From the NCBI RefSeq assembly GCF_008360935.1, contig NZ_SRXO01000009.1, positions 1 through 64,000 of the forward strand: a DNA stretch of 64,000 nucleotides. Reading direction: 5' to 3'. The first letter of the stretch is position 1. Each line of letters starts with the position of its first letter. Of the stretch, positions 124-47,417 are shown in pieces. This stretch comes from Siccirubricoccus phaeus. GTDB taxonomy: Bacteria; Pseudomonadota; Alphaproteobacteria; Acetobacterales; Acetobacteraceae. The position numbers and the translations under genes were made by a program. The notes under the pieces were generated by a model. It was not told the DNA's origin, ran no database searches, and saw only the letters and a list, made by a program, of their open reading frames with translations.

Positions 124-230
124 CTAGAGCAGATCGCCGGGGGGCGGCATCGCCCGGAGGCGTGAATCTGCTCTACAATCCATGAGCTAGAGCGGCTTCG
201 CGCTGCACAGTCAGCGTGAAACCGCTCTAG
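124..230. repeat. CTAG-jointed palindromic repeat (two modules, inverted orientation)
   Basis: This stretch contains a roughly 50-bp palindrome starting CTAGAGCAGATC and ending ATCTGCTCTA, a 12-nt linker, and a 44-bp palindrome from CTAG at 187 to CTAG at 227. Both modules recur in reverse complement at 38477–38583, including the linker. After it, positions 231–406 hold no gene; 236–261 match 47247–47272 exactly (26 bp). Confidence 0.85.
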
Positions 231-406
231 CCTTGGTTTTCAGTGGCCTGCTTGTCCGCTGGCGGGCGGGCGCCCCCAGGAAGGCGGTGCGGCTGCTTCC
301 GCGGCATCGCCCACGGAAGGCTGCACGCGCCACGGCCCTGGGCGGCCACCGGGCCCCATGACGGCGCGCGGCGGCATCATGGGGATAGGCGTCATGGGGA
401 TAAGTG

Positions 407-1183
407 TCAGGTCCCCGTCCACTCCGTGGGCTGCTTCGCCAGGAAGCGCTCCACCGCCACGCGGAAATCATTGCTGGTGAAGCACATGGTCACCAGATCG
501 TCGCCCTCCACCTGGCGGGCGGCGAGGCGCAGGCGGCGCATCGCCTCCTTGGTCGCGCGCATGGTGAGGGGCGCATGGCCGGCAATGGTCGTCGCCAGCG
601 CCGCCGCCCGGGCCTGCAGCGCCGCGTGGTCCGGCAGGATCTCGGAGACCAGGCCCATCGCCTTCGCCTCCTCCGCCTCCACCAGCCGCGCGGTATAGAC
701 CAGGTCCAGCACCCGCGCCGGGCCGATCAGCGCCGCCAGCCGCCCGTAATTTGCCATGGAAAGGCAGTTGCCCAGCGTCTTGGCGATCGGGAAGCCGAAG
801 CGGGCATTGGCGGCGCAGATGCGGAGGTCGCACACCGCGGCGATCGCCGCGCCACCGCCGGTCGCGGCGCCGGCGATGGCGGCAATGGTCGGCTTCGGGC
901 ATTGCTCCAGCGCGACCAGGACGCGGTCGATCCGCTCCTCATAGGCCAGCGCATCTTCCGGCGTGCGGAATTCCCGGAACTGGGAGATGTCGGTGCCGGC
1001 GGCGAAGGCCTTCTCCCCGGCGCCGGTGATGACGAGGACCTTCAGCGCCTTGTCCTCCCCGGCGCCGAGGGCGATCTCCCGCAGCCTTTCATACATGGGA
1101 AAGGTCATGGCGTTGCGCGCCTGCGGGCGGTTCAGGGTGATGGTCCCGATCCCGTCCCGGATCTCGTACAGCAATTCATCCAT
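407..1183 (-). CDS. enoyl-CoA hydratase/isomerase (crotonase) family protein
   Basis: A 258-residue crotonase-fold protein acting on acyl-CoA thioesters in the cytoplasm. The start ATG at 1183 fits the family length. The oxyanion-hole segments are visible: KAFAAGTD (about residues 58–65) and GAATGGGAA (about 105–113), followed by CDLRICA. The glutamate usually found in the P-E-(I/L) motif after the AxFG segment is missing; this protein has FGFPIAK, with Ile at about 133. Plain hydratase activity is therefore uncertain, and an isomerase, racemase or carnitine-type CoA enzyme is possible. The gene faces away from a CoA-transferase gene about 60 bp off, so the two probably share a pathway and a promoter region. 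Exact substrate unknown. Confidence 0.88.
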   Translation of the reverse strand: MDELLYEIRDGIGTITLNRPQARNAMTFPMYERLREIALGAGEDKALKVLVITGAGEKAFAAGTDISQFREFRTPEDALAYEERIDRVLVALEQCPKPTIAAIAGAATGGGAAIAAVCDLRICAANARFGFPIAKTLGNCLSMANYGRLAALIGPARVLDLVYTARLVEAEEAKAMGLVSEILPDHAALQARAAALATTIAGHAPLTMRATKEAMRRLRLAARQVEGDDLVTMCFTSNDFRVAVERFLAKQPTEWTGT

Positions 1184-1243
1184 GGCCTTGCCCTTCCGGC
1201 GGTTCGCGGGGAATCTAGCCCGCGAAGAACAGGGGTTCCAACC

Positions 1244-2416
1244 ATGCTGCCGCTCTCGCGCTTCACCGTCCTCGATCTCACCCGGGTCCGGTCCGGCCCC
1301 ACCTGCGTGCGCCAGCTCGCCGATTGGGGCGCCAATGTCATCAAGATCGAGGCGCCGGCGGAGGTCGAGGTCGGCAGCGGCATGGGCGGGGACCGGCACG
1401 GGCCGGATTTCCAGCACGTGCATCGCAACAAGCGCGGCATCACGCTGAACCTGAAGAACCCGGACGGCCTCGCCCTGTTCAGGCGTATGGTCGCCAAGGC
1501 GGATGTGGTGGTGGAGAATTACCGCCCGGACGTGAAGGACCGGCTGGGGATCAATTTCGAGGCGCTCTCGGCCATCAATCCCCGCATCATCCTCGGCTCC
1601 ATCAGCGGCTTCGGCCAGACCGGCCCCTACGCCCGCCGCCCGGGCTTCGACCAGATCGCCCAGGGCATGGGCGGGTTGATGAGCGTGACCGGCCTGCCCG
1701 GCCAGGGCCCGGTGCGGGTCGGCATCCCGGTGGCGGATCTCACGGCGGGCCTTTACACCGCGCTCGGCATCATGGTGGCGCTGCTGGAGCGGGAGCAGAC
1801 CGGCAAGGGCCGCTGGGTGCATACCAGCCTGCTGGAAGCCATGGTGGCGATGATGGATTTCCAGGCCACCCGCTGGACCATGAAGCATGAGGTGCCGAAG
1901 CAGGTGGGCAACGACCACCCGACCACGGTGCCGACCGGGCTGTTCCGCACCAAGGACGGCATCATGAACCTGGCCGGCGGCGGGCAGGACATGTGGACCC
2001 GCATCGTCGCGACGCTGGGCATCGAGGAGGCCGCCAAGGCGCCGGAATTCGCCACGGACAAGACCCGGGCGCAGAACCGGGCCAAGACCAACGCCCTGCT
2101 GCAAGCCGTGCTGGAGACCGACACCACGGCCAATTGGATCGAGAAGCTGAACAAGGCCGGCGTGCCAAGCGGCCCGGTCTATGCCATGGACGAGGTCTTC
2201 GCCGACCCGCAGGTGCAGCATCTCGGCCTGGAATGGGCGGTGCCGCATCCGCAGTTCGGCGAGGTGAAGCTGGTGCGGGCGCCGATGAACATCGAGGGCG
2301 TCGCCTCCCCCCGCCGCCCGACGCCGGAGCGCGGCGAGCACACCGCCGAGGTGCTGGGGGAATTCGGCGTCTCGGCCGAGGAGCTGGCAGCGCTGAAGGC
2401 GAAGGGGGCGATTTAG
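1244..2416 (+). CDS. CaiB/BaiF family (class III) CoA-transferase
   Basis: A 390-residue class III CoA-transferase, which moves CoA between carboxylic acids through an aspartyl-CoA mixed anhydride. The start ATG at 1244 gives the expected N-terminus (LSRFTVLDLTRVRSGP). The typical segments are present: IKIEAP, RNKRGITLNLK, VVENYRPDV, and RRPGFDQIAQGMGG with the likely catalytic Asp at about residue 136. The C-terminal domain carries the usual QVQHLG segment. It is divergent from the crotonase-like gene at 407–1183, suggesting joint activation and processing of an unidentified carboxylate. Family assignment is firm; formyl-, succinyl- or carnitine-type specificity cannot be read from the sequence. 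Confidence 0.93.
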   Translation: MLPLSRFTVLDLTRVRSGPTCVRQLADWGANVIKIEAPAEVEVGSGMGGDRHGPDFQHVHRNKRGITLNLKNPDGLALFRRMVAKADVVVENYRPDVKDRLGINFEALSAINPRIILGSISGFGQTGPYARRPGFDQIAQGMGGLMSVTGLPGQGPVRVGIPVADLTAGLYTALGIMVALLEREQTGKGRWVHTSLLEAMVAMMDFQATRWTMKHEVPKQVGNDHPTTVPTGLFRTKDGIMNLAGGGQDMWTRIVATLGIEEAAKAPEFATDKTRAQNRAKTNALLQAVLETDTTANWIEKLNKAGVPSGPVYAMDEVFADPQVQHLGLEWAVPHPQFGEVKLVRAPMNIEGVASPRRPTPERGEHTAEVLGEFGVSAEELAALKAKGAI

Positions 2417-2419
2417 CTC

Positions 2420-2560
2420 CCCACGACGTCGCTGCGCAACGCCGCGGGGACGCCTTATTCCCCATGACGTTCCTGCGCAACGCCACGGGGGCCCCGGAGT
2501 CCGTCCCGATCGGCGCCTCGCACAGCCTGCCGCGGCAAAGCCGCGGCAGGGCAACGGGCG
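2420..2560. repeat. dispersed intergenic repeat (CGCAACGCC / CTGCCGCGGC type)
   Basis: Directly after the CoA-transferase stop come two imperfect copies of a CCC(C/A)(A/T)GACGT(C/T)(G/C)CTGCGCAACGCC unit, then the hairpin CTGCCGCGGCAAAGCCGCGGCAG. The same blocks, in reverse complement and in the same relative order, occur at 29636–29747. This is a repeat family rather than coding sequence. The rest of the gap to 2645 shows nothing recognisable. Confidence 0.7.
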
Positions 2561-2645
2561 GCGCGGTTCGGGGCGGGGCGCTCGCGGCCCGGCGCGGGGC
2601 TGGCCGGCCTGGGGGCGGCGACAGGCGGGGTGGCAAGCTGCTAGC

Positions 2646-3248
2646 ATGGCGTCCGCGACGGAGGCGGCGATGGACGGTCTCTTGGAACGGGCGCCCTGGG
2701 TGAAGCGGCACAAGCTGGACGTGCGGGACTACTACCGCATGGGCGAGGCCGGCATCTTCGAGCCGGGCATGCGGGTGGAGCTGATCGAGGGGGAAATCAT
2801 CGACATGGCCCCCATCGGCAGCGAGCATGGCGGCATCGTGAACCGACTCAACCGGTTCTCGGTGCGCGGCGTCGGAGATCGTGCCGTGGTCTCCGTGCAG
2901 GGTCCGCTTCGCCTTTCGGAATTCAGTGAACCGGAACCCGACCTTCTGCTGCTGAAGCCGCGGGCCGATGACTACACCGGCCAGCATCCCACCGCCGCCG
3001 ACGTCCTCCTTCTGATCGAAGTCGCCAATACCAGCCTGCGCTATGACCGCGACGTGAAGCTGCCGCTCTATGCCAGGCACGGCGTGCCGGAAGTCTGGAT
3101 CGTCAATCTCACCGAGGGCCTGATCGAAGTGTATCGCGACCCCAAGGGCGAAGCCTACCTCACCACCCGTCGCGCCGCGCGGGGCGAAACCCTGGAGCCC
3201 GCCGCCCTGCCGGGCCTCCGCCTCGCCGTCGCCGAGGTGCTGGGCTGA
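2646..3248 (+). CDS. Uma2 family (DUF820) restriction-endonuclease-fold protein
   Basis: A 200-residue Uma2/DUF820 protein with the PD-(D/E)xK nuclease fold. The family shows FEPGMRVELIEGEII (about 38–52), the EPEPDL segment with Pro-Asp at 98–99, IEVANTSLRYDRDVK (124–138) with Glu125 and Lys138 as the likely remaining catalytic residues, then LYARHGVPEVWIVN. Members are abundant in cyanobacteria and also found in proteobacteria; their biological role is mostly unknown. An internal ATG at 2670 has a better ribosome-binding site (GGAGG six bases ahead) and may be the true start, giving 192 residues. The stop overlaps the tarD start (TGATG), so they are co-transcribed, although a functional link to tartrate is not obvious. 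Confidence 0.88.
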   Translation: MASATEAAMDGLLERAPWVKRHKLDVRDYYRMGEAGIFEPGMRVELIEGEIIDMAPIGSEHGGIVNRLNRFSVRGVGDRAVVSVQGPLRLSEFSEPEPDLLLLKPRADDYTGQHPTAADVLLLIEVANTSLRYDRDVKLPLYARHGVPEVWIVNLTEGLIEVYRDPKGEAYLTTRRAARGETLEPAALPGLRLAVAEVLG

Positions 3249-5148: not shown

Positions 5149-5615
5149 GGATCGGGACCGGCCGAGGATCGGGTGGCCCGCACCATAATCGGCCCCACGG
5201 CTCAGCCGAGCCGGGACGCCGCATGGCGGCGCTCCGCCTCTGCCGCGCCGCCATGCGTCCGGCGGGCCGTCGCTCTTCAGCCCCTTACCGCCTCGCCAGG
5301 GACGCCGTTGTGTCCGGGCGCCCTCCAAGCTCCGGCCATGGTGCCGATTTCGAGTCAAGGACGAAGCCGCGCGTCGTGCGAACAGCACGCCTCGGGCGCG
5401 ACGCGCGGTGCCGCTGGGCGGCATCCTTGCCGCGAAACCGGCACCATGGCTCTCGCGATTGGCCGCCTTCGGCCAGCGAGGGGCGGCGGCAGCCTCATCG
5501 CCTGGGTGGAGCCCTGCGACGTGCCGGGCGCATGTCACATCGGATAGCCGTGCTGATCGGCGCAACGCAGGCAGTACGACGCAGGCGGCGCATGGCGCGG
5601 CTGCGCGAAGGCCGG
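5149..5615. repeat. 467-bp gene-free gap with stem-bounded dispersed element
   Basis: No gene is seen here. The core is an element at 5335–5450 bounded by perfect 12-bp inverted arms (GCCATGGTGCCG at 5335–5346, CGGCACCATGGC at 5439–5450). Its body contains CCGCGCGTCGTGCGAA (5367–5382), also found exactly in the similarly stem-bounded element at 22345–22457. The flank CACCATGGCT…CGCCTTCG resembles 29553–29583. This is probably a non-coding repeat or structured RNA. Confidence 0.6.
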
Positions 5616-7926: not shown

Positions 7927-8026
7927 GGTCCCATCCCCGTATCCCCGTCTGCTATGTGCCATGCCCTGGCCGCCCGAGGAACCGCGGAGGCTTGCGGGAG
8001 GCCCGCCCTTGGGCTTGTGTGCCCGG

Positions 8027-8155
8027 GAGCCTGCCTCGAAAGGGTCTGCGGCACGTCCTGGCGGGTCTTCGCGCCTGGGCGGCGTCGGCGGCGCCCACCC
8101 TCGGCCGGGACGCAACCCCCTCGCCAACCGTGGGGGACCTTTTCGAGACAGGCTC
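8027..8155 (+). promoter_or_regulatory. long imperfect inverted repeat in the leader of the aminotransferase gene
   Basis: Two 20-nt arms (8027–8046 and 8136–8155) are reverse complements at 18 of 20 positions and enclose about 90 nt that contain further GC-rich complementarity. The right arm ends 21 nt before the ATG at 8177. In RNA this would form one large branched hairpin. It may be a structured leader or a dispersed repeat copy. No known riboswitch was recognised. Confidence 0.5.
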
Positions 8156-8176
8156 TGAGCCCTGGAGACCGCCCGG

Positions 8177-9505: not shown

Positions 9506-9508
9506 GGG

Positions 9509-9529
9509 AATTGGCATAATCTGCCAATT
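9509..9529. promoter_or_regulatory. palindromic operator/promoter of parDE
   Basis: AATTGGCA and TGCCAATT are perfect 8-bp arms around TAATC, centred about 30 bp before the parD start. The dyad is AT-rich in a GC-rich region and contains a -10-like CATAAT. ParD antitoxins repress their own operon by binding such dyads, so this is the likely autoregulatory operator. Confidence 0.75.
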
Positions 9530-9550
9530 GGGGTGGCGAGGAGGTCTGCC

Positions 9551-10158: not shown

Positions 10159-10226
10159 AGCGGCCCGGCCCCGCGCGGCCCATCGAGCACCGCGCAGGGC
10201 CGGCCAAGGCCGGACGCCGTCATTCA

Positions 10227-10325
10227 GGGGCAGCCCAGAGACAGGGGCAGCCCAGAGACAGGGGCAGCCCAGAGACAGGGGCAGCCCAGAGACAGGGGCA
10301 GCCCAGAGACAGGGGCAGCCCAGGG
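10227..10325. repeat. 17-bp tandem repeat, five full copies plus one partial
   Basis: The unit GGGGCAGCCCAGAGACA starts at 10227, 10244, 10261, 10278 and 10295, with a 15-nt partial, diverged copy at 10312. The five full copies are identical. Identity between units suggests recent expansion and likely copy-number variation between strains. There are no spacers, so it is not a CRISPR array. It lies between parE and the small secreted protein gene. Confidence 0.97.
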
Positions 10326-10436
10326 AAAAGGCGCTGCCCGTCGCCCGGGGTGGCCTCGCTGCGGCAGGCCGGTGAAGCCCCAGGGGCGGCTCACCTCAGG
10401 CCCCAGCCGAGCCGCCGCCGGCTCCGGTGGAAGGCC

Positions 10437-15377: not shown

Positions 15378-15419
15378 GGGAGGGCTCTGCCCTCCTCGTC
15401 GGACGCAGTGCGTCCAACC

Positions 15420-15548
15420 CCACCTGCAAAGGGCCGAAAGGCCCTTTGAACCCTGGAATTTGGACCCGTCGGTCGAGGCGCCAAACTCAAGGTTTCCAAA
15501 GGCCCTTCGGCCTTTGGCAGGGGGAGTTTGAGGGGGACAGCGTCCCCC
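15420..15548. terminator. bidirectional terminator-like repeat between convergent genes
   Basis: Two strong hairpins lie between the convergent reductase and Bug genes. The first has arms CAAAGGGCC/GGCCCTTTG around GAAA (15427–15448); the second CCAAAGGCC/GGCCTTTGG around CTTC (15496–15517). A third palindrome, TTGAGGGGGAC/GTCCCCCTCAA, runs into the stop codon of the Bug gene. The unit recurs at 36625–36791 and in part at 44937–44999. Confidence 0.75.
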
Positions 15549-16532
15549 TCAATCCGCCCGCACCCCCGCCGCCTTGGCGATATCCCGCCAGACGATACTT
15601 TCCTCCTGCACCTGCGCCGCGAATTGCTGCCGGCTGGTCCACACCGCCTCGGCGCCCTGCACCGCCAGCGCCTCCCGCAACTGCGCGTTCTCGCTTGCCC
15701 GGCGCATGGCGGCGGAGAGCTTTTCCAGGATCGCCGCCGGCAGCGCAGGCGGCGCGACCATGCAATACCAATTCTCCGCCAGCAGCTTCGGGTAGCCATA
15801 TTCCCCCGTGGTCGCCAGGTCGGGGAGCGACGGGCTGCGCTCCCGCGCCGCCAGCGCCAGCGGGACGATCGCCTTGGCCTGGAGATGCGGCAGCAGCGGC
15901 GGCAGATCCGCGAACAGCAGCTGCACCTGGCCGGCGACGAGATCCGTGATGGCCGGCGCCGCCCCGCGGTAGGGCACCACCTCCACCTCCGCCCCCGTCA
16001 GCGCCTTGAACAGCACGGCGGCGAGGTGGGAGATGCCGGCCGCCCCCGCCGTGCCGATGTTCAGCTTGCCCGGCTGGCGCTTCGCCAGCTCCAGCAGCTC
16101 CGGCAGCGTCTTCACCCGGAGGCTCGGATGCGCCACCAGCGCTTCCGGCACCTTGGCCACCACCGTGACCAGCCCCACCTCCTCCGGCACCTTGTAGGGC
16201 ATGGTGGATTGGGTGTGCGGCACGATGACCAGCGAGCCGCCATCGCAGATCGCCACCGTGTAGCCATCCGGCGCGGATTTCAGCGCCGAATCCGTGCCGA
16301 CCACCCCGGAGCCGCCGGCCCGGTTCTCCACCACCACCTGCTGGCTGAGGATGGGCGTCAGCGCCTGGGCGTAGAGCCGGGCGATGATGTCGTTCGGCCC
16401 GCCCGGCGGGAAGGGGACGACGATGCGGACCGGGCGGTTGGGCCATTCCCCGGCCTGGGCCTGGGCCTGAGTCTGGGTTTGTGCGAGGCTGGGCAGCAGG
16501 CCGGCAGCCGCCAGCAGGGCACGACGTTGCAT
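15549..16532 (-). CDS. Bug/TctC family tripartite tricarboxylate transporter substrate-binding protein
   Basis: A 327-residue periplasmic binding protein of the Bug (TctC) family, which captures carboxylates for TTT transporters. It has a signal peptide (MQRRALLAAAGLLPSLAQ followed by a Gln/Ala-rich linker), then the family hallmark PNRPVRIVVPFPPGGPNDIIAR, VENRAGGSGVVGTD, and SAPDGYTVAI. No TctA/TctB membrane genes are nearby; such orphan binding proteins are very numerous in Acetobacteraceae and Burkholderiales. The ligand is unknown. Its stop codon lies inside the terminator-like repeat. Confidence 0.93.
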   Translation of the reverse strand: MQRRALLAAAGLLPSLAQTQTQAQAQAGEWPNRPVRIVVPFPPGGPNDIIARLYAQALTPILSQQVVVENRAGGSGVVGTDSALKSAPDGYTVAICDGGSLVIVPHTQSTMPYKVPEEVGLVTVVAKVPEALVAHPSLRVKTLPELLELAKRQPGKLNIGTAGAAGISHLAAVLFKALTGAEVEVVPYRGAAPAITDLVAGQVQLLFADLPPLLPHLQAKAIVPLALAARERSPSLPDLATTGEYGYPKLLAENWYCMVAPPALPAAILEKLSAAMRRASENAQLREALAVQGAEAVWTSRQQFAAQVQEESIVWRDIAKAAGVRAD

Positions 16533-16559: not shown

Positions 16560-16602
16560 CTAGACCATGATCTGCACAGACAGAAGTGCGGATCATGGTC
16601 CA
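16560..16602. repeat. palindrome of the CTAG-module type upstream of two genes
   Basis: GACCATGATC (16563–16572) and GATCATGGTC (16591–16600) are perfect arms; with the next five bases the stem reaches 15 pairs (one G·U) around an 8-nt loop. It opens with CTAG like the repeat modules at 38437 and 47193, and the following 60 bp (to about 16665) resemble their GATTCACGCC…CCGGCGATC module. It lies between the divergent Bug and VOC-like genes. Confidence 0.7.
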
Positions 16603-16711
16603 GCTTGTTGTCCGGGCGCGCGATTCACGCCGCCGGGCGGTCCGCCCTCCGGCGATCACGCGCTGGCCTTCACCCGGCCTCGCGCCGGAGCCTCACCCCT
16701 GGAGACACCGC

Positions 16712-23643: not shown

Positions 23644-23971
23644 CTGAAGGTCCCGGACTGAGGTCGCGGGCCCGGAGCGGCTTCACCTTGCCTGCGCTCG
23701 GCGAACCCGGTCCAGCCCATGGTTTGGTGGTATTTCTCGAATCGTCCGGCGATTTCGCCGGACTTGAAAATGCTCTAGCCAATGCCGTGCCACCGGGCGG
23801 CCTTGCGCGCCGGGGAAGACTCTCTTCCACCCTGCCGCGCTATCGGGCGCGGCACCCGGCCCGTACAGCCTTCCGCAGGTCCGGCACCGGACGACCCGGA
23901 GGATGCACCGGAGAACGCCCGGAATCGCCCGCGCATCGCGCCGGCGAGCCCTGCCTGGAGGAGAGACGAGG
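23644..23971. other. gene-free region upstream of GST and Bug genes
   Basis: About 330 bp between divergent genes. It contains a hairpin-prone block GTCCGGCGATTTCGCCGGAC (arms around 23746–23765) and a CTAG at 23775 ending a degenerate repeat-type module (GAGCGGCTTCAC…GCTCTAG). Both divergent promoters should be here, but no convincing -35/-10 pair was found. Confidence 0.5.
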
Positions 23972-27418: not shown

Positions 27419-27495
27419 CCCCCCCCCCCCCGCGCCCCCCCCCCCCCCCCGCCGCCCCCCCCCCCCCCCCGGGGGGGGGGGGGGGGGGGGGGGGG
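27419..27495. other. 77-nt poly-C/poly-G tract, probably a sequencing or assembly artefact
   Basis: About 49 cytosines broken by a few guanines (27419–27470) run directly into 25 guanines (27471–27495). Nothing similar occurs elsewhere in the window. It removes the start of the permease gene. A true tract of this type would be a perfect hairpin; a base-calling or gap-closing error is more likely. Confidence 0.85.
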
Positions 27496-27529
27496 CCGCG
27501 GCAGGCCCGGGCCGTGTGCCGACCCACCC

Positions 27530-29339: not shown

Positions 29340-29747
29340 CGACGTCTCCACATCCGTTGCCCGGTGCCGGCGGCCTTCCCGGCGCGGATGGAACGCGAAA
29401 CGGCGGCGCGGCGCAAGGGTGGGGACGCCTGCCTTCGATTTTCAGGACGCCGCACTACCACAGCCCTAGGACGTTCCGTCCGGACGCGCCATCTGCGCGC
29501 TCGACCTCGCGCCGGAGGCGCGCCTCCGGCGCCTCCTTGACTTGAAATCGACACCATGGCTTTCGCGAATGGTCGCCTTCGACGGTGTCGAAGGCGCATG
29601 AGAGCGCCTTCGCTCAACAGCAGACGGAAGGCGCAACCGGACCGTCCGGTGCCTGCCGCGGCTTTGCCGCGGCAGGCTGTGCGAGGCCCGGCAGACATGG
29701 CGACTCCGGGGCCCCATGGCGTTGCGCAGCAACGTCATGGGGAAATC
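29340..29747. repeat. 408-bp gap filled by two dispersed repeat blocks
   Basis: No gene is seen. Positions 29470–29610 hold a block with CACCATGGCTTTCGCGAATGG and CGCCTTCGACGGTGTCGAAGGCG, related to 5443–5472 and 22470–22500. Positions 29660–29747 hold the hairpin CTGCCGCGGC…GCCGCGGCAG followed by CCCATGGCGTTGCGCAGCAACG, related in reverse complement to 2420–2560. The promoter of the importer operon should lie near 29340–29400 but is not obvious. Confidence 0.6.
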
Positions 29748-36624: not shown

Positions 36625-36791
36625 TGAGGAAGGGCGCTGCCCTGCCTCAAACTCCAACCCGCCAAGGGCCGAAGGGCCCTTGGAACCCTTGAGTCGGCGG
36701 TTCCAACCGCGACGCGCAAACTCCCGGTTTCCAAAGGCCCTTCGGCCTTTGGCGGGGGAGAGTTCGAGAGGGGGCAGAGCCCCCTCTCGCC
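36625..36791. repeat. dispersed hairpin repeat between lpxB and nitrilase-like gene
   Basis: Contains CCAAGGGCC-GAAG-GGCCCTTGG, then CCAAAGGCC-CTTC-GGCCTTTGG, then GAGAGGGGGCAGAGCCCCCTCTC, the same order as 15420–15548. It ends exactly at the stop codon of the nitrilase-like gene. It probably terminates that transcript just before the lpxB start. Confidence 0.75.
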
Positions 36792-38266: not shown

Positions 38267-38436
38267 GGCGCCAGGGATAGGCGGGCGCCCCGCCCCGCGC
38301 AACGGCCGAAGCGGCAAGGCATGCGGCCCTGGCGCATGGCTGGCGCGGCACCGGCGGGAGAGGCTGGTACGGTCGTGTTCATCGTGATGCGATGAGGTCA
38401 CCGAAGCGTCATGGAATCACGCGACCGAACAATGAG

Positions 38437-38583
38437 CTAGAGCGGGGCGGGTGAGCGCAGCTCAACCGATCCCGCTCTAGGGCGGTTTCACGCTGACTGT
38501 GCAGCGCGAAACCACTCTAACTTATGGATTGTAGAGCAGATTCACGCCTCCGGGCGATGCCGCCCTCCGGCGATCTGCTCTAG
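38437..38583. repeat. CTAG-jointed palindromic repeat, three modules
   Basis: Three hairpin modules in a row: 38437–38480 (CTAGAGCGGGGCG…CGCTCTAG), 38477–38520 sharing the CTAG at 38477, and 38532–38583 (TAGAGCAGATTC…ATCTGCTCTAG). Left flank 38409–38440 matches 47351–47381 in reverse complement. The last CTAG holds the TAG stop of the MBL gene. Modules two and three recur inverted at 124–230, module one inverted at 47311–47354. Confidence 0.9.
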
Positions 38584-39398
38584 GGCGCCACCATCTCCGT
38601 CGCCCAGGCGCAGTACCGCGCCGCGCTTTTCGCCAGCGCCGCTTTTGCCCCGGTCACGATCTCCCGCTCGTGGAAGGCGCCGTAGATCGCGTCGAAGGCC
38701 AGCCCCGCGCAATATGCCGCCATGCGCTGCACCTCGGCCGGCGGCAGCGGGATCAGGCAGGGGTAGCTGCGCATGAAGCCCAGATGCTTGCGGTCCGGCA
38801 GCACCTGCAGGACGTCGCCCGAAAGCAGCGCGCCGCGCCCGCCCGCCCCCGCCGCCCAGTGCGCGACGGCCCCGCCGGCGAAATGCCCGCCCAGCCGGTG
38901 CAGCGTGAGCCCCGGCAGCACCGGCTGGGCCTCGCCTTCCCAGAAGCGCAGGCAGGGATCGGGCCGCATCACATGCTGCCGGTCCGCCGCATGCAGCCAG
39001 ACCGGCACACCGAATTCCCGCCCCCATTCCACCATGGTGGAATAGTAGTGCGGATGGCTGATCCCCACCCCCGCCAGCCCGCCCAGCGCCCGGACCAGCG
39101 CGATCGTCGCCGCGTCCAGCAGCGCGATGCAGTCCCAGAGGAAATTCCCCGCCCCCGTCCGCACCAGCAGCGCCCGCTGGTCGATCCCCACGGCCGGCAC
39201 GCTGCGGATGGCCAGCAGCTCCGCCTCCAGCGCCCGCCAGGTATTAGCATGGCCGCGGCGCAGCGCTTCCAGCGTGGTCCAGCCCTGGCCGCGCGCCGGC
39301 ACATATTGCCGCTCATCCTCGCAGATCGGGCAGGCGGGCGGCGGCGCCAGGCTTTCGGCGAATTGGGTGGAACAGGTCTGGCAGAGGAAATGCGGCAT
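38580..39398 (-). CDS. MBL-fold hydrolase with N-terminal zinc ribbon
   Basis: A 272-residue protein with an N-terminal zinc-ribbon (Cys6, Cys9, Cys23, Cys26: CQTC and CPIC) followed by a metallo-beta-lactamase-like domain. The metal motif is degenerate: HPHYYS replaces HxHxDH, while HRLGGHFAGG and LLSGDVLQV provide the later His and Asp ligands. This composition matches a family of 'hydrolases' of unknown substrate in proteobacteria. Its start touches the DsbA-like gene stop (TGATG), so it is the last gene of the M48–DsbA–MBL operon. The TAG stop is provided by a CTAG repeat. Confidence 0.85.
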   Translation of the reverse strand: MPHFLCQTCSTQFAESLAPPPACPICEDERQYVPARGQGWTTLEALRRGHANTWRALEAELLAIRSVPAVGIDQRALLVRTGAGNFLWDCIALLDAATIALVRALGGLAGVGISHPHYYSTMVEWGREFGVPVWLHAADRQHVMRPDPCLRFWEGEAQPVLPGLTLHRLGGHFAGGAVAHWAAGAGGRGALLSGDVLQVLPDRKHLGFMRSYPCLIPLPPAEVQRMAAYCAGLAFDAIYGAFHEREIVTGAKAALAKSAARYCAWATEMVAP

Positions 39399-40138
39399 CA
39401 GAGGCGCTCCCGCGCCTCGGTCACCAGCCGCTCCAGCGTGGCGAGATCGACCGCGCCCGGGATCAGCCGGTCGCCGATCACCAGCGCCGGCGTGCCCTCG
39501 ATGCGCAGCGCCATGGCAAGGCGCCCATTCGCCTCCAGCCGGCGCTGGATGGCCGGGTCCTCCATGTCCCGCCGCAGCCGGGACCAGTCGAGGCCGAGCC
39601 GTTCCGCCTCCCGTCGCAGCACCGGCTCGGTCGGCTCCTCGCGCAGCCGCATCAGCGCGTCCTGCAACGGAACGTATTTGCCCTGGGCCTGGGCGGCCAG
39701 CAGCGCGCGGCTGGCGGTGCGGCTGTTGGGGCCGAGGATCGGCAGGTCCTTCAGCACCAGTCGCACATCCGGCTGGCGCCGCAACAACTCCTCCATCACC
39801 GGGTGGAGCTGCTTGCAATAGCCGCAGCGGGCATCGAAGAACTCCACCAGGGTGACGCGCCCCTGGGGGTTGCCCTTCACCGGGTCGCGCGGGTCCTGGA
39901 ACAGCGCCGGGGCATTGCCCCCGATGGCGTTGCGCGCGGCGCCGTCCCGCGCCGCGTTCTCCGCCGCCTCCAGCGCGCTGAGCGCGTCGCGCAGGATGCT
40001 CGGGTCGCGCCGCAGCGCCTCGCGCATGATCTCGACGATGGCGGCGCGCTGCTCGGCGGTGAAAGGGTCCGCCACGGCCGGACCGGGCCAGGCGAAAGGC
40101 GGCCAGGCCAGCAAAGTCGCCAGGATCAGTTTCCTCAT
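39398..40138 (-). CDS. DsbA family thiol-disulfide oxidoreductase
   Basis: A 246-residue periplasmic thioredoxin-fold protein. It has a signal peptide ending PAVADP near residue 23, a helical N-terminal segment (AEQRAAIVEIMREALRRDPSIL) typical of ScsC/Com1-like DsbA relatives, the active site CGYC (Cys105–Cys108) in FFDARCGYCKQLHP, and the cis-Pro motif GTPALVIGDRLIPG. It would form or reshuffle disulfides, and the N-terminal helix suggests oligomerisation. It overlaps the M48 protease gene by four bases. Together they suggest envelope protein quality control. Confidence 0.93.
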   Translation of the reverse strand: MRKLILATLLAWPPFAWPGPAVADPFTAEQRAAIVEIMREALRRDPSILRDALSALEAAENAARDGAARNAIGGNAPALFQDPRDPVKGNPQGRVTLVEFFDARCGYCKQLHPVMEELLRRQPDVRLVLKDLPILGPNSRTASRALLAAQAQGKYVPLQDALMRLREEPTEPVLRREAERLGLDWSRLRRDMEDPAIQRRLEANGRLAMALRIEGTPALVIGDRLIPGAVDLATLERLVTEARERL

Positions 40139-41568
40139 CGCGGCCTCCGGCGCATGGCGTCATCCTGGTCCCGCTGTTCGCGCGTCAGGTTGTCGCGTTG
40201 GGCGGCGAAGCGCAAATCCTGGGCTCGCAACTTTAAGGCACCAGGGGGCAGCGCCTCTTCCGCGCGCCGGGCGAGGAAGCGGGCGCGGGGATAGTCGCCG
40301 TCCAGCATCGCCTCCTCGGCCAGGGCCAGATCGGCCTGGGGCAACTGGCCCAGCCTGCCATGCGCGGTGCCGAGCTGCCGCCAGGTGAAGCCGCTGTCCC
40401 GTTCCGCCCTCAGGCTCCATTCGAATTCCGTCACGGCCGCCTGCAGCCGGGCGGTGCCGCCCGCCTCCATCAGCGCGCGGCCGTACAGGGTGCGCAGCAG
40501 CGGCTCGTTCGGCGCCAGCCGCACCGCTTCCCGCAGCGGCGCCAGGGCGGCCTCGGGGCGGCCGGCCTCGAACAGGATCTGCCCCTGCAGCTCGCGCAGC
40601 CAGGGATTGCCCGGCTGCTCCTGCAACAAGGGGTCGAGCAGCGCCAGCGCGCTGTCCGCCCTTCCGGTGCGGTACTGCGCCACCGCCCTGGCATAGCGCG
40701 CGGGGGCGGAGGCATCGCTGTCCGGGTAGCGCCGCCAGGTGGTGAGCGGCGGGTCGATGAAGCCGTCCAGCTTCGCCTTCGCCATGCGGAAGGCAGGCTC
40801 GAATTCCGGCGGGAAGCCGCCCGCAGCACCACCCCCCGGGCGGCGGGCGACCACGGTCGCGACGAAATCCATCCGGTCCCGGGACAGCGGATGGGTGCGC
40901 AGATAGGGGTCCTGCCGCGCCGTCACCAGCGCCTCCTGCTCCCTGAGCTTGCCGAGGAGCTGCAGCAGCCCGTCCGCCGGCCAGCCCAGCCGGGCGAGAT
41001 AGGTGATGCCGGCCTGGTCCGCCGCCTGTTCCTGCGCTCTTGTGAAGGCCAGCAGCTCCTGCTGCGCGAGCGCCGGGCCGCTCAGGATCGCCGCGCCGGG
41101 ATTGCCGCCGACATTGCGCCCGCCGGCCGCCGCCACCGCCCCGCCCAGCAGCATGCCGGCGACGGAACGGATCATCGCGTTCCGCATCTCCTCCGGCAGC
41201 CGGGCGACGTGGCCGCCGGCGATATGCCCGGTCTCATGCGCCAGCACCCCGACCAGCTCCCCGACGCTGCCGGATTGCTGGATCAGGCCGGTATGGATGA
41301 AGAGCCGGTTGCCAGTGGTGACGAAGGCGTTTATCGCCCGCGCCTGGATCAGGGATATCCGTACCAGGGCCGGGTCGACTCCGGCGGTGCGGAACAGGGG
41401 GGTGGTGAGGGTGCGGAGGAGCCGTTCGATCTCCGCATCCCGCACCAGCACGGTACTTTCTGTCTGGGCGCTGGCGCGCCCCGGCAGCAGCCAGGGGGCC
41501 AGGGACGCCAGCATGAGGATCAGCGCCGATGCCCAGCGTGCGGCGAAAGGGAAGAGCGCATTCCGCAT
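40135..41568 (-). CDS. M48 family metalloprotease with TPR repeats (BepA-like)
   Basis: A 477-residue periplasmic zinc protease. It has a signal peptide (FAARWASALILMLASLAPWLL…ASAQ), the zinc motif HETGH (His111, Glu112, His115) in VLAHETGHIAGGHVARL, the third ligand in EQAADQAGITYLA, and a C-terminal TPR region (ARYARAVAQYRTGRADSALALLDPLL, NPWLRELQGQILFEAGRPEAALAPL). The architecture equals BepA (YfgC), which assists outer-membrane assembly, including LptD. It starts the operon with a DsbA-like protein. The start ATG at 41568 overlaps the start of the divergent GGT-like gene by two bases. Confidence 0.93.
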   Translation of the reverse strand: MRNALFPFAARWASALILMLASLAPWLLPGRASAQTESTVLVRDAEIERLLRTLTTPLFRTAGVDPALVRISLIQARAINAFVTTGNRLFIHTGLIQQSGSVGELVGVLAHETGHIAGGHVARLPEEMRNAMIRSVAGMLLGGAVAAAGGRNVGGNPGAAILSGPALAQQELLAFTRAQEQAADQAGITYLARLGWPADGLLQLLGKLREQEALVTARQDPYLRTHPLSRDRMDFVATVVARRPGGGAAGGFPPEFEPAFRMAKAKLDGFIDPPLTTWRRYPDSDASAPARYARAVAQYRTGRADSALALLDPLLQEQPGNPWLRELQGQILFEAGRPEAALAPLREAVRLAPNEPLLRTLYGRALMEAGGTARLQAAVTEFEWSLRAERDSGFTWRQLGTAHGRLGQLPQADLALAEEAMLDGDYPRARFLARRAEEALPPGALKLRAQDLRFAAQRDNLTREQRDQDDAMRRRPR

Positions 41569-43024: not shown

Positions 43025-43027
43025 GCG

Positions 43028-43165
43028 GGGGCTTCGCCCGTTGGCGACAGTGCCGCCAACCCCCCACCAGGGGCGCTGCCCCTGGACCCCGCCGTGGACC
43101 GGACCGGTCCCCGGACCCCGGTCCGAGTTTCAGACCCGAGGGTTGAAGCTGCCGACTCTTTCCCC
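43028..43165. repeat. long GC-rich dispersed repeat after the GGT-like gene
   Basis: GGGGCGCTGCCCC, GGACCGGACCGGTCCCCGG, CCCCGGTCCGAGTTTCAGA and CTGCCGACTC follow each other. The central 39 bp also occur at 54680–54720. Members of this family lie at 44396, 47060, 50553, 54630 and 55283, mostly right after stop codons; the hairpins probably terminate transcription. Confidence 0.8.
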
Positions 43166-43224
43166 CCTTGGCGGGGGCGGGCCCCTGCATTCTTCCGGCC
43201 GCCCCGCCCTGCTACTCTGCCGCC

Positions 43225-44391: not shown

Positions 44392-44395
44392 CGCC

Positions 44396-44557
44396 CCACG
44401 GTGGCGTTAGGGGCTCCGCCCCATAGGCGGTAGTTCAGGGAAAAGCGAAGAAAACAGGAAGAAGGATCGGAGGCTTTGCCTCCGAACCCCCACCGGGGAG
44501 GCAAGCGCCTCCCCGGACCCCGGCCTGAGTTTGGATCCGAGGTTTGAACCTGCCGAC
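44396..44557. repeat. long GC-rich dispersed repeat between convergent genes
   Basis: GGGGCTCCGCCCC, GGAGGCTTTGCCTCC, ACCGGGGAGGCAAGCGCCTCCCCGG, CCCCGGCCTGAGTTTGGATC and AACCTGCCGACTCA follow in the same order as at 43028 and 54630. It lies between convergent genes and likely acts as a two-way terminator. Confidence 0.8.
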
Positions 44558-44914
44558 TCAAGGCAGGTCGAGGAACGCCGCGTTGCTGTCCGCCGGCGCC
44601 TGGTCGCGGCGCTCCGCCGGGCCGTAATCCCGCAGCACCGCGGCGACCCGCAGCCGGTAGCCGGCGAACAGCCCCGCCCGGCCCGCGGCCTGGCTCGCCC
44701 GGTGCTCCGCATGGGTCCGCCAGCGGGCCACCGCCGCCTCATCCTCCCAGAAGGAGAGGCTGAGCAGCTTCGCCGGATTGGTCAGGCTGCGGAAGCGCTC
44801 CACCGAGATGAAGCCGGGGATTTGCGCGAGCTCGGTTCGGAGGCGGCCGGCATGGTCCAGATAATTCTCCAGCTTCCCCTCAGCCGGCTCCACCTCGAAG
44901 ATCACCGCGATCAT
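44558..44914 (-). CDS. antibiotic biosynthesis monooxygenase (ABM) domain protein
   Basis: A 118-residue dimeric alpha+beta barrel protein of the ABM family. MIAVIFEVEPAEGKLENYLDHAGRLRTELAQIPGFISVERFRSL and LLSLSFWEDEAAVARWRTHAEHRASQ are the standard two halves. Members are cofactor-free monooxygenases, heme-degrading enzymes or proteins without known reaction. The C-terminus has a 25-residue tail not seen in the core domain. Single-gene unit. Confidence 0.9.
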   Translation of the reverse strand: MIAVIFEVEPAEGKLENYLDHAGRLRTELAQIPGFISVERFRSLTNPAKLLSLSFWEDEAAVARWRTHAEHRASQAAGRAGLFAGYRLRVAAVLRDYGPAERRDQAPADSNAAFLDLP

Positions 44915-44936
44915 TGGCCGTTCCCGAACTCATGAT

Positions 44937-44999
44937 TTCCAAAGGCCTTTCGGCCTTTGGCGGGTGGGAGTTTGAGGGAGGGCGGCGTCCTCCCTCAAC
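44937..44999. repeat. partial copy of the CCAAAGGCC hairpin repeat
   Basis: CCAAAGGCC-TTTC-GGCCTTTGG followed by TTTGAGGGAGGGCGGCGTCCTCCCTCAA, the last two hairpins of the elements at 15420 and 36625. Here it sits between two divergent starts, not at a 3' end. Confidence 0.75.
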
Positions 45000-45063
45000 A
45001 CCCGAACTGGTCGCTTCGGTCCGGGGCGAAGCGTCGCCCGCCCTTCGCTGCTAACCTGCTTGC

Positions 45064-45771
45064 ATGTCCACCCCCGCCGCCTTTGCCGGCCTCGCCGCCC
45101 TGATGGGCGACCCCGCCCGTGCTGCCATGCTGCAGGCCCTGCTCTCCGGCGAGGCCCTGACCGCCGGCGAGCTGGCCCGCGCCGCCGGCATCGGCGCCCC
45201 GGCCGCCAGCGCGCATCTCGCGCGGCTGGCCGAGGGTGGGCTGGTCCTGGTCCATCCCCAGGGCCGCCACCGCTATCACCGCCTGGCCGGCGAGGAGGTT
45301 GCCGCGGCCATCGAGATGCTGGGCGGCCTCGCCACCGCCGTCGCCCCTGCCCGTCGCTGGCCGCATGGCGAGGAATTCCGCCAGGCCCGCCTGTGCTACG
45401 ACCACCTCGCCGGCCGCCTTGGCGTCGCCCTGCATGGCGCGCTGACGGGCCGGGGCTGGATCGCCCCCGCCCCCGGCGGCTGGCAGGCGACCGGGGCAGG
45501 GGAGGCGGGCCTCGCCGCCCTGGGCGTGGACCTGACCGCCGCCCGCCGCGCCCGCCGCTTCGCCTGCGACTGCATGGACTGGTCGGAGCGCCGCGCCCAT
45601 CTGGCCGGCGGGCTGGGCCGGGAGATCGCTGCCTGCTGCCTGCGCCGCCACTGGCTGCGCCGCCTGCCGCCGCTGCGGGAGGGCGATCCGCTCGGCCGCC
45701 GCCGCCTGGCCCTGACGCCGGAGGGCGCCAGGCAGCTCGATGCCGCGCTCGGGGTGAGGCTGGCGGCGTGA
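45064..45771 (+). CDS. ArsR-type helix-turn-helix regulator with C-terminal extension
   Basis: A 235-residue winged-helix protein. The N-terminal ArsR domain is clear: LAALMGDPARAAMLQALLSGEALTAGELARAAGIGAPAASAHLARL, then QGRHRYHRLAGEEVAAAIE. The C-terminal 130 residues carry several cysteines (RLCYDHLAG, RFACDCMDWSERRAHLAG, AACCLRRHWLRR) that could bind metal or sense redox state; this CYDHLAG/CxDWSERR layout is typical of a subgroup of longer ArsR proteins. It overlaps the MFS transporter by four bases, so it probably controls export or uptake by that carrier. Confidence 0.92.
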   Translation: MSTPAAFAGLAALMGDPARAAMLQALLSGEALTAGELARAAGIGAPAASAHLARLAEGGLVLVHPQGRHRYHRLAGEEVAAAIEMLGGLATAVAPARRWPHGEEFRQARLCYDHLAGRLGVALHGALTGRGWIAPAPGGWQATGAGEAGLAALGVDLTAARRARRFACDCMDWSERRAHLAGGLGREIAACCLRRHWLRRLPPLREGDPLGRRRLALTPEGARQLDAALGVRLAA

Positions 45772-47015
45772 GGGATGGCGAGCTGCCCCCGGGCGCCGAG
45801 GGCACGGATCACGGCGCCCGCCGCCGCCTGTTCTACGCCCTGGCGCTGATGACCGGGGCCAGCCAGTTCCACCGCGCCGCGCTGGGCGTGGTGGGGCCGG
45901 AGCTGGCCGCCGATCTCGGCGCCGGGCCGGCGCTGCTGGGGGCGGCGAATGGCGCCTTCTTCCTGGCGCTGCTGCTGCTGCAGGTGCCGGTGGGGCTGGC
46001 GCTGGACCGGCTGGGGCCGCGGCTGACGGTGGCGGCGCTGTCGCTGCCGGCCGCGCTGGGCGCGCTGGGCCAGGCGTTGGCGCCGGAGGGCGGCTGGTTC
46101 CTGCTCGCCCGCTTCGTGCTGGGGCTGGGCTGTGCGGCCTCCTTCATGGGGGCGGTGGTGCTGGCGGCGCGCTGGCATGGCGGGCCGGCGCTGACCACGG
46201 CGCTGGCCCGCATCTTCGCCAGCAGCCAGGCGGGCGTGCTGCTGGCCGGGGCGCCCTTCGCCTGGGTCTCGGGGCTGCTGGGCTGGCGCGGGGCCTATGC
46301 GGTCTCGGCGGCGATGACGCTGGGGCTGGCCTGGCTGTGGTGGCGCTGGGCGCGGGACGACCCGCCGGACCGCCCCCGCCCGCACCGCCCGGCCGAGGGG
46401 CTGGGGGAGGCGCTGCGCGGGCAGCTCACCGTCTGGCGGACGCCGGGGCTGCTGCCGGTGCTGGCCATGCATCTGGTGGGCTATGCCGCCGCGGCGACAG
46501 TGCTGGCGGTCTGGGCCGGGTCCTATCTGGCGGAGGTGCATGGCCTGGCCCCCGGGCCGCGCGGCGCGGTGCTCGGCGCCATGGGCGGCGCGCTGGTGCT
46601 GGGGCTGCTCGGCATCGGCCCGCTGGAGCGGCGGCTGAACACGCGGAAATGGCTGGTCGCGGCCTGCTGCCTGGGGGCGGCGGTGTCGCTGGGCTTGCTG
46701 GCGGCCCGGCCGGGGGCGCCGCTGCCGGCGGCGGTGGCGCTGCTGGTGCTGCTCTGCCTCTTCAGCGCCTTTCCGGTGGTGGTGGTGGCGCATGGCCGCA
46801 GCCTGTTCCCGGACCATCTGGTCGGGCGCGGCGCCACCACGGTGAATCTGGCCCAGACCCTGGGCAGCGCCGCCCTGCCGGCGCTGACCGGCTGGGCGGT
46901 GGCGGTGGCGCCGGCCGGCGAGGCCTGGCCGATCGCCTTCGGCACGCTGGCGGGCTGCCTGCTGCTGGGGCTGGCGGGCTACCTGACCGGCCGGGACGCG
47001 CCGCCGAGGGGATGA
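45768..47015 (+). CDS. MFS transporter
   Basis: A 415-residue major facilitator with about twelve membrane helices. ALMTGASQFHRAALGVVGPELAADLG starts the first helix pair; PVGLALDRLGPRLTVAALSL is the conserved loop between helices 2 and 3. The second half begins near GLLPVLAMHLVGYAAAATVL. The start is the GTG at 45768 overlapping the ArsR stop (GTGA). It is likely regulated by the ArsR-type gene before it; substrate unknown. Confidence 0.92.
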   Translation: MRDGELPPGAEGTDHGARRRLFYALALMTGASQFHRAALGVVGPELAADLGAGPALLGAANGAFFLALLLLQVPVGLALDRLGPRLTVAALSLPAALGALGQALAPEGGWFLLARFVLGLGCAASFMGAVVLAARWHGGPALTTALARIFASSQAGVLLAGAPFAWVSGLLGWRGAYAVSAAMTLGLAWLWWRWARDDPPDRPRPHRPAEGLGEALRGQLTVWRTPGLLPVLAMHLVGYAAAATVLAVWAGSYLAEVHGLAPGPRGAVLGAMGGALVLGLLGIGPLERRLNTRKWLVAACCLGAAVSLGLLAARPGAPLPAAVALLVLLCLFSAFPVVVVAHGRSLFPDHLVGRGATTVNLAQTLGSAALPALTGWAVAVAPAGEAWPIAFGTLAGCLLLGLAGYLTGRDAPPRG

Positions 47016-47059
47016 CGTGAGGGGGGCACATGGCGATGGCGCCGATCTGCCAGGAATGG

Positions 47060-47185
47060 GGACGCCGCCCTCGAACCCCCGGCAAAGGGCGCCGGCTCGT
47101 TGGCGGCGGTGCCCCCAACCCCGTCGGGGCCAAGGCTTGGCCCCGAACCCCGCCCTGAGGCTGCAAGTTGAGCCGTCGGGTCTGA
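47060..47185. repeat. long GC-rich dispersed repeat (diverged copy)
   Basis: CCCCCAACCCCGTCGGGGCCAAGGCTTGGCCCCGAACCCCGCCCTGAGGCTGCAAG follows the order of the family at 43028 and 50553 but is more diverged. It opens a 605-bp gene-free region (47016–47620) consisting almost completely of repeats. Confidence 0.65.
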
Positions 47186-47192
47186 ACTGAAG

Positions 47193-47417
47193 CTAGTGTC
47201 CCGCTTCCGCAGTCCTGCGGACTTCGTTCTCGGGCCACCAGCTTGTGTTTTCAGTGGCCTGCTTGTCCGCTGCCTTCGCTGGAAATCCAGCGAACTTCGC
47301 GGGCAGGACACTAGAGCGGGATCGGTTGAGCTGCGCTCACCCGCCCCGCTCTAGCTCATTGTTCGGTCGCGTGATTCACGGTTTCGGTCGATTCGACCTC
47401 AACCGATCACGCTCTAG
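47193..47417. repeat. chain of CTAG-jointed palindromic modules
   Basis: CTAG sites at 47193, 47311, 47351 and 47414 divide the stretch into three modules. The first (47193–47314) has perfect 9-bp ends CTAGTGTCC/GGACACTAG and contains the 26-bp match to 236–261. The second (47311–47354) equals 38437–38480 inverted. The third (47351–47417) contains GTTCGGTCGCGTGATTCA, matching 38413–38434 inverted. Neighbouring modules share their CTAG. Confidence 0.9.

What the first reader, a model, noticed from the sequence alone, without database searches (positions are those of the whole stretch)
124..47417. Modular palindromic repeats joined by shared CTAG tetranucleotides
Three loci (124–230, 38437–38583, 47193–47417), plus weaker ones at 16560 and 23700–23778, are chains of hairpin modules of about 44–60 bp, with one of about 120 bp. 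Each module starts or ends with CTAG or (C)TAGAG/CTCTA(G), and neighbours share the same CTAG. Modules appear in different orders and orientations. CTAG is generally rare in many bacterial genomes, so a system that joins or cuts at CTAG is conceivable. This looks like a mosaic, recombining or mobilised repeat (REP/RAYT-like or RNA-processed) rather than ordinary terminators.
Basis: partly seen in the sequence, partly recalled or inferred. Interest (0 to 1): 0.72.

Follow-up and report, generated by a model that had tools for sequence, protein, structure and literature searches.

The report
Mobile hairpin repeats inserted at CTAG
These are small gene-less mobile DNA elements that insert into CTAG sites and leave a CTAG at both ends, so they pile up in chains; they resemble the long-known intergenic repeats of rhizobia and relatives, whose way of moving has been unclear.

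Summary
The loci are chains of short hairpin elements, often joined by one shared CTAG. In 737 kb of this Siccirubricoccus-genus genome CTAG is eight- to nine-fold below base-composition expectation, yet 103 of 221 CTAGs border a matched element. The usual units are a 103-bp two-hairpin element (63 + 40 bp; types alpha and beta) and a 118-bp element (gamma), not freely shuffled hairpins, although a 63-bp half twice sits inside alpha at its internal CTAG. S. soli has a bare CTAG where the window has an element (16560; 23672-23778), and in one own locus alpha splits gamma at a CTAG that some other gamma copies keep. So these are insertions at CTAG/YTAR that leave the site on both sides. The plan, spacing and fold recur, with covariation, in rhizobial and Sphingobium plasmids and in 23 of 181 sampled class genomes (own included; a few weak): the RIME/Bru-RS kind. 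No Y1/RAYT gene was found in this genome. A TA-targeting DDE transposase acting in trans is likeliest. IS5-type ISs at YTAR, one abutting alpha at a shared CTAG, fit, but 8 of the 23 genomes lack that IS domain, so the enzyme is not identified.

The parts
124..230 (+). beta element (b63 124-190 + b40 187-230), CTAG at 124, 187 and 227
   Evidence: R1, 71.7 bits
232..261 (+). gamma remnant next to beta
   Evidence: g118 positions 50-80
16560..16666 (-). diverged beta-like 103-bp element between CTAG and CTGG; S. soli has a bare CTAG here
   Evidence: R1, 65.5 bits; this element was in the alignment R1 was built from, one base shorter
23672..23778 (-). diverged 103-bp element ending in CTAG; S. 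soli has a bare CTAG here
   Evidence: R1, 35.2 bits
38414..38480 (+). alpha element truncated at its left (end of a63 38414-38440, a40 38437-38480)
   Evidence: R1 hit 38401-38480, 55.1 bits
38477..38583 (-). beta element sharing the CTAG at 38477 with alpha
   Evidence: R1, 52.3 bits
47193..47314 (+). gamma element (TGTCC...GGACA, 118 bp CTAG to CTAG)
   Evidence: this copy is the g118 reference
47311..47417 (-). alpha element (a40 47311-47354, a63 47351-47417), shares the CTAG at 47311 with gamma
   Evidence: R1, 83.6 bits; in the R1 alignment
59433..59491 (-). gamma half, CTAG at 59433
   Evidence: g118 positions 62-122

Best explanation
The loci are non-autonomous mobile elements of the alphaproteobacterial RIME/Bru-RS kind. 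Each is a roughly 103-bp unit of two hairpins (63 + 40 bp) joined at an internal CTAG; a separate 118-bp element (gamma) has the same insertion habit. SHOWN: they insert at CTAG/YTAR, and after insertion CTAG (or a variant of it) stands on both sides. INFERRED: the target TA is duplicated, written C-TA-[GAGC...GCTC]-TA-G, so one CTAG becomes two, and new copies land in the CTAGs supplied by older copies. That makes the chains with shared CTAG in any order and orientation. CTAG is depleted in the rest of the genome, so the elements carry a large share of their own targets. INFERRED: a transposase acting in trans moves them, most likely a TA-targeting DDE enzyme such as an IS5-family (IS427/IS1031-like; group names recalled) or IS630/mariner-like one. 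SHOWN: the fold and spacing are kept across the class with compensatory changes; why the fold is needed is open.
For: Empty sites: window 16560 and 23672-23778 filled, S. soli bare CTAG in aligned flanks; the reverse, S. soli filled and own site TTCAG at C1:488588. Nested: alpha splits a gamma in L240 (AAAACAAAAG-CTAG-[alpha]-CTAG-TGGCCC); L220 has an uninterrupted gamma with CTAG there, and of 14 pattern matches in C1+C54 3 have CTAG, 10 CTGG or CCAG and 1 is probably unrelated. Borders: at 118 outer ends the base before TA is C 94, T 18, A 3, G 3; 57 ends are exact CTAG, TTAG 10, CTAA 3, most of the rest transitions of the TA. Five elements have TTAG at one end and CTAG at the other, three at the 63 end and two at the 40 end. 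ISs with PF13340: of 30 loci scanned, 5 gave clear ends: L049 (TTAG...CTTAG, ends GAGCG), L071 (CTAA[GAGCG...CGCTC]TAAG), L063 and L064 (TA both sides at YTAR), L090 (TA both sides at GTAG); L050 abuts alpha through one CTAG, L051 ends at CTAG. Published parallel: IS711 duplicates TA at YTAR and prefers Bru-RS (PMC2266754, PMC3163539, passages seen). Class-wide plan. Covariation: 85.8% cells paired against 72.2 shuffled, 61 double changes against 22; further hits 90.2% against 65.2. Modules lie outside coding-like ORFs in 88 of 99 cases by a crude gene call.
Against: No IS with alpha, beta or gamma terminal repeats was found; the match to L049 and L071 is only about AGAGCG plus YTAR, and by my reading those two have 3-bp TNA repeats, not TA. 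PF13340 is absent (E 0.001) from 8 of 23 element-bearing genomes, including G164 with 12 hits; the association in the rest (15 of 23 against 44 of 158) may reflect genome size. The two empty sites have flanks of 88-92% identity, and one border of each filled site has decayed (CTGG, CCGG). Locus 1 lies at the contig start; loci 2 and 3 gave no clean empty site. One gamma (C1:587959) has TTAG/CTAA ends, which a 4-bp duplication predicts instead. Junctions alone cannot tell a TA duplication from insertion without duplication 3' of YTA by an element that ends in CTA. A plain DDE MITE would not need a class-wide conserved fold. In one search one of five measures (further pair types) did not exceed shuffles (175 of 500).
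Confidence: 0.74

Rival explanations
1. The elements move as folded single strands (IS200/IS605- or attC-like): an enzyme recognises the hairpins and inserts the strand 3' of YTA, and the element carries its own terminal CTA. No target duplication is involved.
For: Fold and spacing are kept by compensatory change over both stems; the border data fit this equally well; in the 16-element alignment the linker ACAAWGANCTARAGC is the most conserved stretch, not the left tip.
Against: No Y1 transposase (PF01797) in the own genome, although three alpha copies are identical to the reference and so look recent. Alpha carries matching inverted ends (GAGCGTGATCGGTTGAG / GAGCGGGATCGGTTGAG), as double-strand elements do.
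Confidence: 0.2
2. REP/BIME elements mobilised by a RAYT.
For: Hairpins, intergenic, mosaic, a TAG-containing tetranucleotide at the border.
Against: PF01797: no match in the own genome while it rings in 5 of 14 control genomes; CTAG at both ends; two-hairpin unit of about 103 bp.
Confidence: 0.03
3. Transcribed RNA structures (mRNA 3' protection, terminators or attenuators) spread by occasional duplication, with CTAG only incidental.
For: Conserved fold; intergenic location; 26 REP elements of S. meliloti showed transcription (PMC2873474, passages seen).
Against: Empty CTAG sites, nested insertion at CTAG and CTAG joints in several orientations need a CTAG-specific insertion step; no Rfam match.
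Confidence: 0.05
4. Chains arise by recombination or repair between CTAG sites of resident repeats rather than by transposition.
For: b63 inside alpha in L197 and L220 without b40 and a beta array (C1:376614) look like module exchange or amplification.
Against: Single elements stand alone at CTAG sites that are bare in S. soli, which recombination between repeats does not give. It may act in addition, so these odds overlap with the best reading.
Confidence: 0.06

Closest known systems
RIME (Rhizobium-specific intergenic mosaic elements), Rhizobium/Sinorhizobium
   Same: Intergenic mosaic repeats of rhizobia. Elements read here from plasmids of R. etli, R. phaseoli, Rhizobium sp. CIAT894, R. 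leguminosarum, S. mexicanum, S. chiapasense, S. americanum, S. terangae and E. adhaerens have YTAR-(62..64)-YTAR-40-YTAR (one starts ATAG), most with a linker ending ..CAAAGA(N).
   Different: Siccirubricoccus alpha/beta differ in sequence (alpha finds no plasmid at E 1e-5). The original 1995 paper is not held, so that the plasmid elements are the named RIMEs was not checked; the two-palindrome, 108-bp description is recalled.
Bru-RS1/Bru-RS2 of Brucella
   Same: 103-105 bp palindromic intergenic repeats, 35-40 reported copies (PMC2267715 table, passage seen); YTAR site in Bru-RS1 received IS711 with TA duplication (PMC3163539, passage seen; PMC2266754, passages seen).
   Different: Sequence not compared here; no Brucella DNA was fetched.
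IS711 and related IS5-family insertion sequences
   Same: TA duplication at YTAR (published); ISs with PF13340 end at TTAG or CTAG in the own genome and at YTAR or GTAG in relatives.
   Different: Autonomous (IS711 842 bp; L049 about 865 bp); terminal repeats are not those of alpha/beta/gamma.
REP/BIME with RAYT
   Same: Hairpin repeats, intergenic, mosaic.
   Different: GTAG at one end and 20-40 bp units (PMC3733652, abstract start and passages seen); no Y1 transposase found in this genome.

Membership tests
RIME/Bru-RS-type intergenic two-palindrome elements | About 103-108 bp made of two hairpins | tested here: met
   26 of 40 paired alpha and beta copies span exactly 107 nt CTAG..CTAG, i.e. 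a 103-bp repeat unit, the rest 99-106; architecture scan 25 in C1 against 1 in reversed C1. Gamma (118 bp) is not of this plan
RIME/Bru-RS-type intergenic two-palindrome elements | Homology to rhizobial elements | tested here: met
   S. soli copy L059:7960-8140 against plasmids at E 10: 60 records, but of the 20 listed only H1 (S. mexicanum 2e-5), H2 (S. chiapasense 3e-3) and two Komagataeibacter (4e-8) are below 0.01, and the list has unrelated taxa too. H1 and H2 proved full elements of the same spacing; covariance model over 16 elements. Alpha itself: no plasmid match
RIME/Bru-RS-type intergenic two-palindrome elements | Intergenic | tested here: met
   88 of 99 full-length modules (gamma included) outside coding-like ORFs, 7 partial, 4 inside; coding-like fraction 0.81; crude GC3 gene call
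RIME/Bru-RS-type intergenic two-palindrome elements | Mosaic exchange of parts | tested here: met
   b63 inside alpha in L197 and L220; S. soli site D: b63 with a different 40-bp half; half-length matches among rhizobia
RIME/Bru-RS-type intergenic two-palindrome elements | Identity with the published RIME1 and Bru-RS sequences | not tested
   RIME paper not held; no Brucella genome was chosen for search
MITE of an IS5-family (PF13340) element | Insertion at TA of YTAR, TA on both sides | tested here: met
   a TA duplication is not distinguishable from insertion 3' of YTA
MITE of an IS5-family (PF13340) element | Terminal repeats shared with an autonomous element in the genome | tested here: not met
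   only AGAGCG + YTAR shared with L049; loci from PF13586, PF13340 and PF13358 searched in own genome
MITE of an IS5-family (PF13340) element | Partner transposase present wherever elements are | tested here: not met
   15 of 23 genomes with elements have PF13340, 8 do not; old copies could outlive their enzyme
REP/RAYT | Y1 (RAYT) transposase in the genome | tested here: not met
   PF01797: 0 matches own genome
REP/RAYT | GTAG at one end of a 20-40 bp hairpin | tested here: not met
   CTAG/YTAR at both ends, 103-bp unit

The most novel reading that the evidence does not exclude
The 103-bp two-hairpin plan (49 + 14 + 40 bp between YTAR sites, similar linker, compensatory changes along both stems) is a class-wide substrate for one still unidentified trans-acting enzyme that reads the folded strand and joins it at YTA. 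It would be a CTAG-directed structure-dependent transposition system distinct from RAYT and from IS5 MITEs, inherited or spread through many alphaproteobacterial families.
Probability: 0.2. Interest if true: 0.78.

Novelty: new member of a known kind. Interest (0 to 1): 0.52.

Why it matters
Rhizobial repeats of this kind were described in 2008 as intergenic sequences of unknown function (PMC2573895, passage seen). Empty CTAG sites, a nested insertion and a class-wide covariance model turn them into a testable mobile system. They offer a reason why such repeats form mosaics (the target stands again at both ends) and give a motif, a substrate and a junction to assay. They also account for about half of the rare CTAG sites in the part of this genome that was examined.

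Tried and rejected
RAYT/REP: no PF01797 in the own genome. IS630 family as partner: PF13358 gave 2 hits, no convincing TA-flanked terminal repeats. Automatic IS-end finding gave mostly noise; of 30 PF13340 loci scanned only 5 clear pairs were used. Alpha against plasmids: no match at E 1e-5. Exact linker pattern AACAAWGANCTARAGC: 47 + 53 in the own genome, 0 there with the reversed control (1 control match in another genome, G024), but only 4 of the other 189 class genomes, one match each; by eye L155 (G164) is an element, L157 (G153) perhaps, L156 and L158 look like chance. So the letters of the linker are not conserved class-wide; the plan is. Locus 1 is 124 bp from the contig start. Locus 2 gave no clean empty site because the intergenic region differs in S. 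soli and S. deserti; synteny with S. soli contig 309 ends near 47 kb, so locus 3 could not be tested. Elements at C1:277390, C1:281380 and C1:496839 gave no clean empty site. In C1+C54 I saw no element interrupting an internal 63/40 CTAG; the two cases with b63 inside alpha came from elsewhere. R1 class hits near E 1e-3 (G075, G204, G216) and loci L213 and L216-L218 do not show the YTAR plan well and may be chance; L221, L222 and L224 were put off register by my script. Rfam: no match. PF13340 presence goes with elements (Fisher p 0.0007), but genome size was not controlled. Paper searches: no listed title or abstract start states the CTAG-regeneration mechanism for RIME or Bru-RS; only passages of eight papers were seen, and the library lacks most subscription papers.

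Full report
1. What is there. The window is the start of contig C54 (G000:C54:1-64000) of a 6.55-Mb genome in 54 contigs. The three main loci and the two weak ones read as described. Genome-wide there are 181 exact CTAGAGC-N20..45-GCTCTAG palindromes against 8 with the reversed pattern. I took contig C1 (593 kb) and 144 kb of C54, window included. CTAG is rare (174 and 47, against 1543 and 374 expected by composition and 534 and 122 by a Markov estimate), its spacings peak at 40, 63, 103 and 118, and 103 of 221 CTAGs stand at the border of a matched module.

2. The real units. Matching six modules to C1 and C54 gave 146 matches, many partial, in 79 chains. The usual units are alpha (a63+a40) and beta (b63+b40), both 103 bp from CTAG to CTAG, and gamma (118 bp, with a shorter 62-bp form). 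They join in many orders and orientations: 13 of 23 inter-element joints are exactly one shared CTAG, as are 30 of 42 internal 63/40 joints; the remainder are decayed, tandem or loose. A sequence-free scan for YTAR-63-YTAR-40-YTAR with two stems found 25 in C1, 21 of them at exactly (63,40), against 1 in reversed C1.

3. They are insertions at CTAG. (a) Window 16560-16666: S. soli has ...GGCGGAAG-CTAG-CGTCCCGCC... with no element. (b) Window 23672-23778: S. soli has ...GCTTGC-CTAG-CCAGCGCC... with no element. (c) In reverse, S. soli carries an element between TTAG and CTAG where the own genome has GTTTCAGCG. (d) Inside the own genome alpha splits a gamma at AAAACAAAAG-CTAG-TGGCCC (L240); L220 and three gamma copies of C1+C54 show that position uninterrupted with CTAG, ten others with CTGG or CCAG. 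(e) b63 sits in alpha's internal CTAG in L197 and L220. Other elements compared with S. soli gave no clean empty site. At 118 outer ends the base before TA is C 94, T 18, A 3, G 3, and TTAG (10) exceeds CTAA (3). Among 57 paired elements TTAG at one end goes with CTAG at the other in five cases, at either end; one gamma has TTAG/CTAA. Most of this fits Y and R coming from the target and G and C from the element: C-TA-[GAGC...GCTC]-TA-G. It does not by itself prove a TA duplication.

4. Why chains. One insertion turns one CTAG into two. Because CTAG is depleted elsewhere, older copies supply a large share of available targets, so copies accumulate side by side. This step is inference from points 1-3.

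5. Which enzyme. No Y1/RAYT match in the genome. IS5-family transposase domains are present: PF13586 3 and PF13340 8 matches; PF13358 (IS630) 2; the link from Pfam name to IS family is recalled. L049 is an IS with ends GAGCG in a TTAG context. L050 and L051 are copies at contig starts that end at CTAG, L050 directly abutting alpha. In relatives L063 and L064 show TA on both sides at YTAR, L090 at GTAG, and L071 has GAGCG ends between CTAA and TAAG; these and L049 are the 5 clear cases of 30 loci scanned. Published work reports TA duplication at YTAR and preference for Bru-RS by IS711 (PMC2266754, PMC3163539; passages seen). Against this: no IS shares the long terminal repeats of alpha, and 8 of 23 genomes with elements have no PF13340. 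The enzyme is therefore unidentified.

6. Relatives. The S. soli copy L059:7960-8140, searched against plasmids at E 10, led to S. mexicanum (2e-5), S. chiapasense (3e-3) and Komagataeibacter (4e-8); most other rows of that search are weak. The S. mexicanum element has CTAG spacings 49/14/40 when read in the orientation of beta, total 103; beta has the same total and an internal CTAC at the 49 position. That element matches 114 plasmid records at E 1e-3, all but one of them Rhizobium, Sinorhizobium, Ensifer, Neorhizobium or Martelella. Of 14 further plasmid loci fetched, nine (L183, L185-L192) show YTAR (one ATAG)-(62..64)-YTAR-40-YTAR; L182 was read off register, and L184 and L193-L195 hold only half elements or were mis-registered. 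Alignment A1 of 16 elements, seven of them close Rhizobium/Sinorhizobium relatives, gives 85.8% paired cells against 72.2 +/- 1.3 shuffled, 61 double changes against 22, and at most 45% when slid; the number of further pair types did not exceed shuffles. Model R1 finds matches at E 0.001 in 23 of 181 class genomes, own included, in 18 families (at most 21 candidates were scored per genome, so copy numbers are lower bounds; the weakest genomes may be chance). The 32 hits in 28 of those loci, own genome left out, give 90.2% against 65.2 +/- 1.1 and 23 of 26 pairs with changes on both sides (this alignment was fitted to the model and so leans towards it, and it includes one G164 element that was also in A1).

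7. Reading. Alpha and beta are filed with the RIME/Bru-RS kind; identity with the named published sequences was not tested, and gamma is a different element with the same target. New here are three sequence families in Siccirubricoccus, empty-site and nested-insertion evidence for CTAG targeting, an explanation of shared CTAGs, and a class-wide structural model. A conserved fold is more than a simple DDE MITE needs, which keeps folded-strand recognition open.

Noticed in passing
window 8023-8155: About 131-bp insertion absent from S. soli, with terminal inverted repeats like GAGCCTGYCTCGAAARGGTC; a similar insertion at C1:569165. Looks like another small non-autonomous element family without CTAG.
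   Followed up: no
window 15419-15553, 36632-36788, 44924-44996: Repeat family with TTTCCAAAGGCCCTTCGGCCTTTGG-like palindromes, longer in the window than in S. soli at 15378-15484.
   Followed up: no
window 43061-43158, 44465-44560, 50560-50734, 54639-54804, 55278-55372: GC-rich repeat family (CCCCGCCGGGGAC..GGTCCCCGGACCCCGGTCCGAGT) in both orientations.
   Followed up: no
window 2458-2550 and 29652-29744: Inverted copies of a 36-nt perfect repeat with a CCGCGGCAAAGCCGCGG palindrome, and a second 37-nt pair beside it.
   Followed up: no
window 10208-10343: Tandem 17-bp repeat CAGGGGCAGCCCAGAGA, about six units.
   Followed up: no
window 27427-27511: Long poly-C runs followed by a poly-G run; possible slippage site or assembly artefact.
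   Followed up: no
window 38580 and 47414: Two ORFs on the minus strand (38580-40163, 47414-48346) end exactly at an element's CTAG, so the inserted CTAG may supply their TAG stop codon.
   Followed up: partly
L006:1399-1442: Another TTAG/CTAG-bounded hairpin (TTAGGGCGTTCGCCATG...CATGGCGAACGCCCTAG) joined to a 62-bp gamma form by a shared CTAG; further small families exist beyond alpha, beta and gamma.
   Followed up: no
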